Part shown: in pieces, positions 15,452-21,924 of the stretch
Position numbering within the stretch: position 1 is the stretch's first letter
Layout: every line of letters starts with the position of its first letter
Origin: a bacterium
Lineage (GTDB): Bacteria; Myxococcota; UBA727; JAUIJE01
DNA length: 64,000 nt
Direction of reading: 5' to 3'
Assembly (NCBI GenBank): GCA_030431455.1
Contig: JAUIJE010000001.1
Coordinates: 496,001-560,000 of the forward strand
Translations under genes and position numbers: made by a program
The notes under the pieces: generated by a model
Database searches by the model: none
The model's input: only the letters and a program-made list of their open reading frames with translations
Told to the model about the DNA's origin: nothing

Positions 15452-15958
15452 GTGACGTTCGAAGCCGACCAAGTGGAGCAGCTCTGCCGAGCTTACGGCA
15501 GCTCCATCTTGCGCCGGTGCCGCGCCATTCTGAAGAACGACGCCGAGGCGGAGGACGCCGCGCAGGAGGTCATGGTGCTGCTGTTTGAGAAAGGTCAGCA
15601 GTTTCGTGGCGACGCGGCGGTCTCGACGTGGATTTACCGGGTGACGACCAACGTCTGCCTCAACCACATCCGGTCGGAGTCGCGGCGGCGGACCCGGGAG
15701 CAGTCGGGCGATGTGCGCGACTGGATCGAAAAAGAAAATCCCGATGCCCAGCGATTCGTGGTGCAGAGCGACGTGCTGCGGGAGGCGTTGGGCGGCTTGA
15801 GCGACCTCGACCAGCAGATCTTTGTGCTGCGCCACGTCGACGGGCTGCGCCAAGACGAGATCGCGGAGGTGGTCGGGCGCTCCAGGCGCACGATCAACAA
15901 GCGATTGAAAAAGCTCGACGAGTGGACGGAGAAAAAGCGCGCGGAGGTGCCGTCATGA
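15452..15958 (+). CDS. ECF-type RNA polymerase sigma factor
   Basis: A 168-residue sigma factor with region 2 (residues 12-75: LKNDAEAEDAAQEVMVLLFEK, then FRGDAAVSTWIYRVTTNVCLNHIR) and region 4 (about 108-160: LSDLDQQIFVLRHVDGLRQDEIAEVVGRSRRTINKRLKKL). Region 3 is missing, as expected for the ECF group. The start is the GTG at 15452 with GGAGA upstream. It overlaps the next gene, a membrane protein with an anti-sigma zinc motif, by an ATGA junction. It most likely drives this operon, including the caspase gene, when the anti-sigma factor lets go. Confidence 0.92.
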   Translation: MTFEADQVEQLCRAYGSSILRRCRAILKNDAEAEDAAQEVMVLLFEKGQQFRGDAAVSTWIYRVTTNVCLNHIRSESRRRTREQSGDVRDWIEKENPDAQRFVVQSDVLREALGGLSDLDQQIFVLRHVDGLRQDEIAEVVGRSRRTINKRLKKLDEWTEKKRAEVPS

Positions 15959-16719
15959 GCCGCGCCTTCGACGAGCCCGGGCGCGGGGCGGGGTGCTTGA
16001 GCGACCTCGTCCTCGACGTGAAAGTCGCCGAGGGGCACCTGGCCGCGCCCGATGCCGCCCACCTCGAGACCTGCGCGGCGTGTGCGGCCCGGCTCTTGGT
16101 CCTCGAGGAGCAACAGCGCATCTGGGCCCCCGACGTGTTGCGTCTCGCCGCCCGGGCCAAGGCCCATGCCCGGCCCCGGGCCCGCGCGGTGTGGGCCCGT
16201 CGCCTGTTCGCGGGGTTGGTCCCGGCCGCCTGCGCCGCGGCCGCGTTGGTGTTCTTCGTCGTCGACGAAGCGCCCCCCGACCGGAGCAAGGGCGTGGCCA
16301 TGTCGCTGTTCGTGCAGCGTGACGGCGAGGTCTTCATCGGGGCGTCGGGCGATGCCTACCAAGCGGGGGACGCATTCCGGTTCCGGGTGCGGCCGCGGCA
16401 CCATCCATACTTTATGCTCGTGGGCGTGGATGGCCATGGACGGACCACGGTGTTCTACCCCCTCGGCGGCGACGCGGCGGCCCCGCTCGAGGACCACGAC
16501 GAGGTCCCGCTCGATGCCAGCCTGGTGCTCGACGACGCGCCGGAGCAGGAGTTCGTGCTCGGGGTGTTCGCGGATCGTGCGGTCACCGCCGGGGAGGTCG
16601 CGCGGGCGGTCGCGGCGGCGCGGGCCCGCGACGGGCGGTTGCACGAAGACGCGCTGCATGACGTGACCCTCGACGCTGAGCTGTCCTGGGTGGTGCTGAA
16701 CAAGGGAGCCCGACAATGA
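15955..16719 (+). CDS. Putative ZAS anti-sigma factor with periplasmic DUF4384-type domain
   Basis: A 254-residue protein with three parts. Residues 20-55 hold AHLETCAACAARLL, an H-x3-C-x2-C motif as in zinc anti-sigma domains. One membrane segment follows at about 85-105 (LFAGLVPAACAAAALVFFVV). The outside domain (RFRVRPRHHPYFMLVGVDGHGRTTVFYP) matches DUF4384, often found next to caspases and kinases. It would hold the ECF factor at the membrane until the outer domain senses something. It overlaps both neighbours by ATGA-type junctions. Confidence 0.8.
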   Translation: MSRAFDEPGRGAGCLSDLVLDVKVAEGHLAAPDAAHLETCAACAARLLVLEEQQRIWAPDVLRLAARAKAHARPRARAVWARRLFAGLVPAACAAAALVFFVVDEAPPDRSKGVAMSLFVQRDGEVFIGASGDAYQAGDAFRFRVRPRHHPYFMLVGVDGHGRTTVFYPLGGDAAAPLEDHDEVPLDASLVLDDAPEQEFVLGVFADRAVTAGEVARAVAAARARDGRLHEDALHDVTLDAELSWVVLNKGARQ

Positions 16720-21400: not shown

Positions 21401-21924
21401 AAGAGGCGCTGCAGAAGCTGTCCGAGGTCGGTGACCGCACGTTCGAGGGCCCGTTCTTGGGCTTTTTGGGCATCGCGGCCCACAACCGGGGCTCTTTGGG
21501 CGAGGCGGTGCGCCACCTCGAGCGCTCCATCGCGGTGATGCGCGAGACCGGCAACCTCCGCTACGAGGGGCTGATGCTCGGCTACCTCGGCGCGGCCCTG
21601 GCCGCGTCCGACGACCCCGACCGGGCCGAGGCGGTGTTTGGCCAATCGGACGAGCGCAACCGGGTGGTGGGCGATCCCCGGCACATCGACTGTGGCAAGC
21701 TCCAGCGCGGTTTTCTCGAGCTGTGTCTGGCCCGCTCGGCGTTGTCCGCGGGCAACACCGACGGGGCCCGGGCGTTGATCGAACGGGTCGAGCGCCGCCT
21801 CAAGACCGCCAAGGCCCCCGGCGAGGACGGCGGGCCGTCGGCCTACGCGCGCAGCGACGAGGTGCGCCGCATCTGGCGGATGCTCACCCACGACCTCGAA
21901 CGGTCACGGCCGCGCGATCGCTAG
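18418..21924 (+). CDS. Ser/Thr kinase-STAND ATPase-TPR fusion
   Basis: A 1168-residue signalling protein. The kinase (about 4-285) has the GSGGMADVF loop, Lys39, HRDISPHN at 144 and DFG at 164; the HRDxSPxN form is common in myxobacterial kinases. A Ser/Thr-rich linker leads to a STAND-type ATPase with FVGRKAAL, Walker A GPGGTGKTRL near 440 and Walker B MLLVLDNFE, then GLPLAIELAAARM and a winged-helix part (TLDWSWDLLEP). TPR repeats fill about 840-1130. There is no membrane segment. The start is the GTG at 18418 with GGAGGG upstream. It lies 136 bases after the caspase gene in the same direction. Confidence 0.9.
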   Translation: MERLGRYELIAPIGSGGMADVFLARLIGAEGFSRQLVVKRMRPELSARKDAVRMFLDEARICSSLFHPNLVQVFDLGQVEDTYFIAMEFVDGPHLGRLVRHLIRGGEKLPLVLCTYIVHGVALGLHHAHEAKDPHTGQGLGIVHRDISPHNILVSRFGDVKVVDFGVAKATGRKSETKSGVVKGKVFYMSPEQVLGDDIDRRSDIFSLGIVLFEIATGRRLFKQKSDLVSMQLITQEDAPSASAFNPDVDDELAGIIARSLRRNREERTPTMEALAAELATWISRQTQKHLQTELGDWVSAKAEVLIPSVKLAAEGGIPPVGGVSPIEGGPGSDPLTSGEATLAETLPSSDSSSDEGIHSQVTHVARKTQTKQALNSQKGDDTGSGTNESSNISLSTRAFEKLKTNLAPHGARFVGRKAALSDIDALFAEGARIVTLIGPGGTGKTRLALRYAEKHLPELSKGGGGAWFVDLTNVDGLGELCAKVGEVLGVPLTGQGSADSLAAHLGRAIAGRGRMLLVLDNFERLVAHGPKTVAQWQHLAPDARFIVTSREVLRLDDEAAYEVAPLSLPGPDVPVHKAEAVQLFVDRAKKARPGFALADEDAAVVAEIVAKLDGLPLAIELAAARMRVLRPKKILDRLSRRFDLLRGGARDLSPRQATLRGTLDWSWDLLEPVEQTALTQSAVFRGGFSLEAAEEVLALGDDAPWPLDVVQALRDKSLLRSYEVAQQASETRFSMYESVREYAQEKLDETGRGPDAEARHAAYFLDAGTSWAAQVPTKKGKDALIQLTLERQNIMAVANRAVAQRDKATAVSAALILAPLFSARGPFADQIELLDKTLALPGDIPVHQLVEAHLARGRARRRLGRIADSRADFAEALKLSVQNQREDLEGVALRDLGVLALDEGRLDDAERNFQDALEKNQRTQAVRDEGECRAYIAFLYDERGEPAAAEPYYQEALRILREVGDLRTEALVHGNYGGLKQEQGNPDAAQRHYEEALQKLSEVGDRTFEGPFLGFLGIAAHNRGSLGEAVRHLERSIAVMRETGNLRYEGLMLGYLGAALAASDDPDRAEAVFGQSDERNRVVGDPRHIDCGKLQRGFLELCLARSALSAGNTDGARALIERVERRLKTAKAPGEDGGPSAYARSDEVRRIWRMLTHDLERSRPRDR

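What the first reader, a model, noticed from the sequence alone, without database searches (positions are those of the whole stretch)
15452..21924. Signalling block joining an ECF sigma pair, an exported caspase-barrel protein and a kinase-STAND-TPR protein
The first three genes overlap by ATGA-type junctions. The caspase has the His101/Cys138 dyad but also a Sec signal and ends in a barrel-like region with terminal Phe, so it is probably active in the envelope, unlike the usual cytosolic prokaryotic caspases. The DUF4384 part of the anti-sigma-like protein would face the same space. Next comes a kinase fused to a STAND ATPase, a family used in immunity and cell-death control. Together this could be an envelope-damage or conflict response not described as a unit.
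Basis: partly seen in the sequence, partly recalled or inferred. Interest (0 to 1): 0.75.

Follow-up and report, generated by a model that had tools for sequence, protein, structure and literature searches.

The report
Surface-anchored caspase unlocking a sigma factor
Three overlapping genes, found again and again across myxobacteria, look like an alarm in which a caspase held by an outer-membrane barrel cuts a lock protein in the inner membrane and frees a gene switch; the neighbouring kinase gene is not part of it.

Summary
15452-18281 encodes an ECF sigma factor, a zinc-type (ZAS) anti-sigma factor with one membrane helix and a DUF4384-like outer part, and an exported caspase ending in an OmpA-like eight-stranded barrel (AlphaFold, Foldseek). 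This triad, in the same order, recurs across Myxococcota, often several times per genome, and in a second phylum. The kinase-STAND-TPR gene is not conserved with it. A 2012 survey had noted sigma factors in myxobacterial metacaspase operons; I found no account of the anti-sigma factor, the barrel or a mechanism.

New here is a shared motif. The anti-sigma factor carries R-x-K-G in the flexible stretch just outside the membrane (94 of 107 non-redundant sequences; 0 of 29 other zinc-finger proteins). The same R-x-K-G lies in the caspase loop that related enzymes cut to activate themselves, and a second invariant K-G lies between caspase and barrel; AlphaFold finds both disordered. C14 enzymes other than animal caspases cut after Lys/Arg. 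Best reading: the caspase self-cleaves, leaves its barrel and cuts the anti-sigma factor beside the membrane, starting intramembrane proteolysis that frees the sigma factor. Cleavage and trigger are inferred, untested.

The parts
15452..15958 (+). ECF sigma factor (168 aa from the GTG at 15452; an alternative GTG lies at 15407)
   Evidence: Pfam Sigma70_r2 and r4_2; homologue upstream of 56 of 62 and 72 of 79 related caspases
15955..16719 (+). Anti-sigma factor, 254 aa: zinc-type (ZAS) cytoplasmic domain, one membrane helix, DUF4384-like periplasmic domain; overlaps the sigma gene by ATGA
16060..16083 (+). ZAS motif H-x3-C-x2-C (HLETCAAC, residues 36-43)
   Evidence: sequence; conserved in most homologues
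16219..16263 (+). Transmembrane helix of the anti-sigma factor (residues 89-103)
   Evidence: AlphaFold helix 89-103; hydrophobicity
16282..16293 (+). R110-S-K-G113: proposed site where the caspase cuts the anti-sigma factor (after K112), in the flexible stretch just outside the membrane
   Evidence: K and G are the most conserved residues of the family; RxKG in 94 of 107 non-redundant sequences; 0 of 29 control zf-HC2 proteins; lies between the helix and the first strand, beside a segment of pLDDT below 50
16297..16704 (+). DUF4384-like beta domain of the anti-sigma factor (residues 115-250), predicted periplasmic
   Evidence: weak Pfam hit; AlphaFold strands; DUF4384 hits in six genomes fall largely on caspase-adjacent anti-sigma genes
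16716..18281 (+). Exported caspase (C14) with C-terminal outer-membrane barrel, 521 aa; overlaps the anti-sigma gene by ATGA
16716..16772 (+). Sec signal peptide, about residues 1-19
   Evidence: sequence; a hydrophobic export signal precedes the caspase domain in the relatives
17016..17129 (+). Catalytic His101 (17016-17018) and Cys138 (17127-17129)
   Evidence: invariant; present in 94 of 94 non-redundant relatives
17148..17159 (+). R145-A-K-G148: proposed activation self-cleavage site, nine residues after the catalytic Cys
   Evidence: K147-G148 invariant; [KR]G in 94 of 94; lies within one of only two segments with pLDDT below 50, residues 146-163
17466..17729 (+). Beta-rich domain between caspase and barrel (about residues 251-338)
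   Evidence: AlphaFold strands
17748..17753 (+). K345-G346: proposed self-cleavage site freeing the caspase from its barrel
   Evidence: invariant in 29 aligned caspases, at least 90% in a second set; lies within the other segment with pLDDT below 50, residues 342-350
17802..18272 (+). Eight-stranded OmpA-like outer-membrane barrel (residues 363-519), protein ends ...SYRF
18415..21924 (+). Kinase-STAND-TPR protein: present, but judged NOT part of the unit
   Evidence: Pfam domains; not conserved beside the triad; best relative about 163 kb from that genome's caspase module

Best explanation
The three genes form a self-contained trans-envelope switch. The ECF sigma factor is held inactive by the zinc-type cytoplasmic domain of a single-pass anti-sigma factor. 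The caspase is exported and tethered in the periplasm by its OmpA-like barrel in the outer membrane. On an unknown signal, perhaps felt by the barrel or by the variable beta domains, the caspase cleaves itself in the loop after its catalytic cysteine (R-x-K|G), activating it, and at K345|G346, releasing it from the barrel. It then cuts the anti-sigma factor at R-x-K|G, about nine residues outside the inner membrane. That removes the DUF4384-like domain and leaves a short stub, the usual substrate of a site-2 protease; intramembrane proteolysis then frees the sigma factor. Shown by sequence: the triad, the dyad, the export signal, the shared motif. Supported by prediction: the barrel, the topology and the flexible placement of the sites. 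Inferred: all three cleavages, the direction of regulation, the role of the site-2 protease, and the signal.
For: Order and spacing of the triad conserved in 56 of 62 and 72 of 79 loci, also in a second phylum. R-x-K-G after the membrane helix of the anti-sigma factor in 94 of 107 non-redundant sequences, with two more RxRG, against 0 of 29 other zf-HC2 proteins from genomes of the same phylum and 25 of 3000 random 49-aa windows. K (52 of 55) and G (54 of 55) are more conserved than the zinc ligands (45 of 55), although the distance from helix to motif varies from 6 to 20 residues, as expected of a cut site in a flexible linker. The same motif stands in the caspase loop (RxKG in 79 of 94, [KR]G in 94 of 94) and a second KG in the linker to the barrel. 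The only two segments of the caspase model with pLDDT below 50 contain exactly these two sites. In the divergent modules of the host genome the basic residue is mostly Arg, in both the caspase loop and the anti-sigma factor. Non-caspase C14 enzymes cut strictly after Arg/Lys and orthocaspases process themselves (PMC5756287); a metacaspase matures by cuts after Lys263 and Arg307, its catalytic Cys being 238 (PMC9622860). The host has M50 site-2-type proteases. A caspase-family protease that relieves inhibition of an ECF-like sigma factor by cutting its inhibitor is known (Csx29/Csx30, PMC10028731).
Against: No cleavage has been shown. One module of the host genome (L052) has TQG instead of [KR]G in its anti-sigma factor, and L060 has RIKS. 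A few caspases have no sigma gene next to them in the same orientation (L053, L102, L107). The linker site lacks Arg at P3, and some divergent members lack a clear linker site. In a yeast metacaspase, basic residues at the cut sites were not strictly required in vitro. Basic residues beside a membrane helix could have another role. The barrel is a prediction for one protein, and divergent members in the host genome have two hydrophobic segments in its place.
Confidence: 0.75

Rival explanations
1. The caspase is the output, not the trigger: the sigma factor is activated by something else and turns on caspase production, and the caspase degrades envelope or foreign proteins as a stress or conflict effector.
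For: Sigma factors commonly control their own operon (general knowledge); prokaryotic caspases are often linked to cell death and conflict.
Against: Does not explain why the anti-sigma factor bears the same R-x-K-G motif as the caspase's own loop, at an exposed site by the membrane, nor its absence from 29 other zf-HC2 proteins.
Confidence: 0.12
2. Both functions (an extension of the best explanation, not exclusive with it): the caspase cuts the anti-sigma factor and also acts on other envelope targets, so the switch is one branch of a wider proteolytic response.
For: Several modules per genome; a recurrent flanking lipoprotein on the same strand in 99 of 140 loci could be another partner or target.
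Against: No conserved R-x-K-G was noticed in the few lipoprotein sequences read; no other target was sought.
Confidence: 0.3
3. R-x-K-G is a structural or membrane-interface motif, and another protease (DegS/HtrA type) cuts the anti-sigma factor; the caspase is only a co-transcribed partner.
For: Basic residues occur at membrane interfaces; DegS cuts RseA in Escherichia coli (as described in PMC10028731).
Against: Conservation of G after K, the same motif in the caspase loop, variable distance from the helix, and absence in controls.
Confidence: 0.1
4. A four-gene signalling block including the kinase-STAND-TPR protein.
For: Same strand, 133 bp downstream.
Against: Not conserved beside the triad in about 60 loci; kinase-like genes there are few and mostly on the opposite strand; best relative in the order about 163 kb from that genome's caspase module; the host genome has 32 matching kinase places.
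Confidence: 0.03

Closest known systems
Sigma-metacaspase operons of myxobacteria (Asplund-Samuelsson et al. 2012, PMC3501461)
   Same: Very probably the same operons: four of five metacaspases of Myxococcus xanthus DK1622 lie in predicted operons with sigma-70 genes, also in Anaeromyxobacter, Haliangium and Sorangium, and in Ralstonia and Fibrobacter.
   Different: In the passages read the anti-sigma factor, the shared cleavage motif, the barrel and any mechanism are not mentioned.
Type III-E CRISPR CASP system: Csx29 protease, Csx30 inhibitor, CASP-sigma (PMC10028731)
   Same: A caspase-family protease cuts an inhibitor of an ECF-like sigma factor and relieves the inhibition.
   Different: There the protease is RNA-activated TPR-CHAT Csx29, bound to Cas7-11; here a small exported caspase with a barrel, a membrane anti-sigma factor and no CRISPR parts noticed.
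DegS-RseP-RseA-sigmaE pathway of Escherichia coli
   Same: Membrane anti-sigma factor cut outside the inner membrane, then inside it, to free an ECF sigma factor (as described in PMC10028731).
   Different: Site-1 protease is DegS, a protease of another fold; here it would be a caspase held at the outer membrane and encoded in the same operon.
EACC1/EACC2-caspase conflict systems (PMC7159879, PMC8195603)
   Same: Caspase coupled to a small membrane protein; EACC2 neighbourhoods often include an ECF sigma gene.
   Different: The caspase scores 62 bits against the EACC1-caspase cut-off of 140; the membrane partner here is a ZAS/DUF4384 anti-sigma factor.
ECF54 sigma factors with CHAT-domain neighbours (PMC8999054)
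   Same: Proteolytic control of an ECF factor proposed from neighbouring proteases including CHAT domains.
   Different: ECF54 is described as lacking an anti-sigma factor; here one is present and bears the proposed site.
Metacaspases and orthocaspases (C14)
   Same: Domain, His-Cys dyad, and in the family Lys/Arg preference and self-processing.
   Different: Exported, with a C-terminal outer-membrane barrel and a cognate sigma/anti-sigma pair.

Membership tests
C14 caspase family (metacaspase/orthocaspase type) | C14 domain with His-Cys dyad | tested here: met
   PF00656 4.4e-14 over cut-off; His101 and Cys138 invariant; 94 of 94
C14 caspase family (metacaspase/orthocaspase type) | Cleaves after Lys/Arg and processes itself | not testable with these tools
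   Known for the family; here only inferred from invariant K-G sites
ECF sigma / ZAS anti-sigma pair | ECF sigma with regions 2 and 4 | tested here: met
ECF sigma / ZAS anti-sigma pair | H-x3-C-x2-C motif in the anti-sigma cytoplasmic domain, gene directly after sigma | tested here: met
   HLETCAAC in the window; motif in most homologues, missing in some
ECF sigma / ZAS anti-sigma pair | Anti-sigma binds and inhibits the sigma factor | not testable with these tools
   inferred from family and gene order
Regulated intramembrane proteolysis (RseA/DegS type) | Single-pass anti-sigma with site-1 cleavage close to the membrane | tested here: inconclusive
   Single helix and conserved motif about nine residues outside it; cleavage not shown
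Regulated intramembrane proteolysis (RseA/DegS type) | Site-2 protease present | tested here: met
   M50 matches in the host genome, best 8.1e-54; M50 is near-universal, so weak support
OmpA-like eight-stranded outer-membrane barrel | Eight-stranded meander barrel at the C-terminus | tested here: met
   AlphaFold strands 363-519; Foldseek OmpA/NspA/OmpX/OmpW; prediction only
EACC1-caspase conflict system | EACC1-associated caspase type over the curated cut-off | tested here: not met
   NF047832 62.1 bits against cut-off 140
Type III-E CASP (Csx29/Csx30) | TPR-CHAT protease coupled to Cas7-11 | tested here: not met
   The protease is a C14 domain with signal peptide and barrel, no TPR/CHAT; a Cas7-11 gene was not specifically searched for
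Known anti-phage defence system | Match to a PADLOC system model | tested here: inconclusive
   Caspase matches a PADLOC caspase model weakly (4.8e-4); kinase hits are generic to protein kinases

The most novel reading that the evidence does not exclude
A widespread class of bacterial surface-signalling systems in which an outer-membrane beta-barrel caspase is an activatable, self-releasing site-1 protease dedicated to an anti-sigma factor encoded in the same operon, linking events at the outer membrane to transcription through a caspase cascade in the periplasm.
Probability: 0.6. Interest if true: 0.88.

Novelty: new variant of a known kind. Interest (0 to 1): 0.76.

Why it matters
Prokaryotic caspase homologues are numerous, yet few have a known natural substrate; here the sequence itself nominates one, with the exact bond, in the same operon. 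If true, the function of many myxobacterial caspases becomes testable with a single cleavage assay, and a caspase-type zymogen cascade would act in signalling across the bacterial envelope rather than in cell death. It would also suggest a role for the DUF4384-like domain of these anti-sigma factors and give an entry point to several orphan ECF factors per genome in multicellular, predatory bacteria.

Tried and rejected
Kinase as part of the unit: rejected. Fusion of anti-sigma and caspase suggested by 750-820 aa open frames: rejected, these are in-frame upstream extensions in GC-rich DNA, since sigma and anti-sigma genes overlap them in other frames and the export signal lies just before the caspase domain. 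Shared promoter upstream of the sigma genes: nothing convincing; enriched word pairs appeared to come from coding sequence of an upstream lipoprotein gene, and no sigma-70-type promoter was found in 15150-18500. Plasmids hold only distant caspases. Defence-system reading: no specific support. The large ECF classification paper was not held, so the ECF group of this sigma factor was not determined. The exact taxonomic order of the host was not determined.

Full report

Checking the observation. The three genes at 15452-18281 are as described. Sigma and anti-sigma genes overlap by ATGA at 15955, anti-sigma and caspase by ATGA at 16716. The sigma factor has regions 2 and 4. The anti-sigma protein has the H-x3-C-x2-C zinc motif of the ZAS type, one membrane helix (residues 89-103) and a weak DUF4384 match; a homologue in another genome passes the DUF4384 cut-off. 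The caspase has the His101/Cys138 dyad, invariant in the aligned family, and an export signal that precedes the caspase domain in the relatives examined.

The barrel. AlphaFold on an alignment of the window protein and relatives gives mean pLDDT 86 and eight long strands between residues 363 and 519. Foldseek against solved structures returns OmpA, NspA, OmpX, Ail and OmpW as best matches. This is a prediction for one protein. Divergent members in the host genome (L052-L056) instead have hydrophobic segments typical of membrane helices, so the anchor varies.

Conservation of the neighbourhood. The caspase family was found in 163 of 195 genomes of the phylum, commonly in several copies per genome. 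In 62 caspase genes examined, a sigma gene stands upstream in the same order in 56 and an anti-sigma gene in 57, at nearly fixed spacing; two of the missing sigma genes are in loci that end shortly upstream. In 79 loci from named genomes (Myxococcus, Corallococcus, Pyxidicoccus, Archangium, Anaeromyxobacter and others), 72 have the sigma gene and 74 the anti-sigma gene. The two sets overlap in some genomes, so they are not fully independent. The host genome has the triad at the window and at several further places (L050, L051, L052, L055, L056). In a second phylum, reached through a contig labelled Leptospiraceae, 21 of 149 genomes have the caspase, and the ten strong loci fetched carry sigma and anti-sigma genes as well.

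The kinase. It is real but does not travel with the triad: in the loci fetched, only a handful have any kinase-like gene nearby, mostly on the opposite strand, and the best relative in the same order, in G012, lies about 163 kb from that genome's caspase module.

The shared motif. Aligning the anti-sigma factors showed that the most conserved residues of the whole protein are not the zinc ligands but a K-G pair in R-x-K-G, a few residues outside the membrane helix (K 52 of 55, G 54 of 55, zinc ligands 45 of 55; distance from helix 6-20 residues). After removal of close copies, 94 of 107 sequences have RxKG in the post-helix window and two have RxRG; of the three without any K/R-G there, two carry RxKG just beyond the window and one, L052, truly lacks it. 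A control of 29 other zf-HC2 proteins, taken from six genomes of the phylum including the host, had no R-x-[KR]-G after the helix and four with any K/R-G; it is a small control and includes some soluble proteins. Random 49-aa windows hold RxKG in 25 of 3000.

The caspase carries the same R-x-K-G in the loop nine residues after its catalytic cysteine (RxKG in 79 of 94, K/R-G in 94 of 94), about the place where caspase relatives are cut during activation (between p20 and p10), and a second invariant K-G between the beta domain and the barrel. The only two segments of the model with pLDDT below 50 are residues 146-163 and 342-350, which contain exactly these two sites: invariant residues in otherwise disordered stretches are what a protease recognition site looks like. 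In the anti-sigma model R110-S-K-G113 lies between helix and first strand, beside the low-confidence segment 105-109. In the divergent modules of the host genome the basic residue is mostly Arg in both caspase loop and anti-sigma factor (L055, L056), with L054 and L052 as imperfect cases.

Mechanism. Characterised C14 enzymes other than animal caspases cut strictly after Arg or Lys, and orthocaspases process themselves (PMC5756287); a Candida metacaspase matures by cuts after Lys263 and Arg307 (PMC9622860), although basic residues at those sites were not strictly required in vitro. Taken with topology, the simplest reading is that the exported caspase activates itself at R-x-K|G, frees itself from the barrel at K|G, and cuts the anti-sigma factor at R-x-K|G, leaving a stub of about nine residues outside the membrane for a site-2 protease, of which the host has several M50 candidates. 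All cleavages are inferred. Which end senses the signal is unknown; the barrel's outer loops are a guess.

Comparison with the known. The operon arrangement was noted in 2012: four of five Myxococcus xanthus metacaspases lie in predicted operons with sigma-70 genes, also in Anaeromyxobacter, Haliangium and Sorangium, and in Ralstonia and Fibrobacter (PMC3501461). Literature searches here found no description of the anti-sigma factor, barrel or mechanism, but the library holds only part of the literature. The nearest mechanistic parallel is the CRISPR-associated Csx29 protease, which cuts Csx30 and relieves inhibition of an ECF-like sigma factor (PMC10028731); the nearest pathway parallel is DegS-RseP-RseA. 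The system differs from both in its protease, its location and its genetic packaging, hence 'new variant of a known kind'.

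Noticed in passing
L050:4609-5676 (-), L060:8229-9263 (-) and 99 of 140 caspase loci; not at the window: A lipoprotein family of about 320 aa without Pfam match flanks the triad, always on the same strand, upstream, downstream or both. It may be a further component of the system.
   Followed up: partly
L052, L053, L054, L055, L056 (host genome): Divergent caspases with two hydrophobic C-terminal segments instead of a barrel, and mostly R-G instead of K-G at the proposed sites.
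   Followed up: partly
L052: The one triad whose anti-sigma factor lacks any [KR]G after the helix (ATQG): a natural exception worth testing.
   Followed up: no
L102: A caspase whose sigma and anti-sigma genes lie upstream on the opposite strand rather than in one operon.
   Followed up: no
window 12740-14143 (+): SurA-type peptidyl-prolyl isomerase gene upstream of the triad (Rotamase 4.2e-20), separated from it by a minus-strand gene (14567-15208); conservation of this neighbourhood was not tested.
   Followed up: no
host genome G000, 32 places: The host genome holds at least 32 strong matches to the kinase-STAND-TPR protein, a large serine/threonine-kinase repertoire.
   Followed up: no
L164: A contig labelled Comamonas sp. 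KCTC 72670 carries a typical myxobacterial triad; the record may be misnamed.
   Followed up: no
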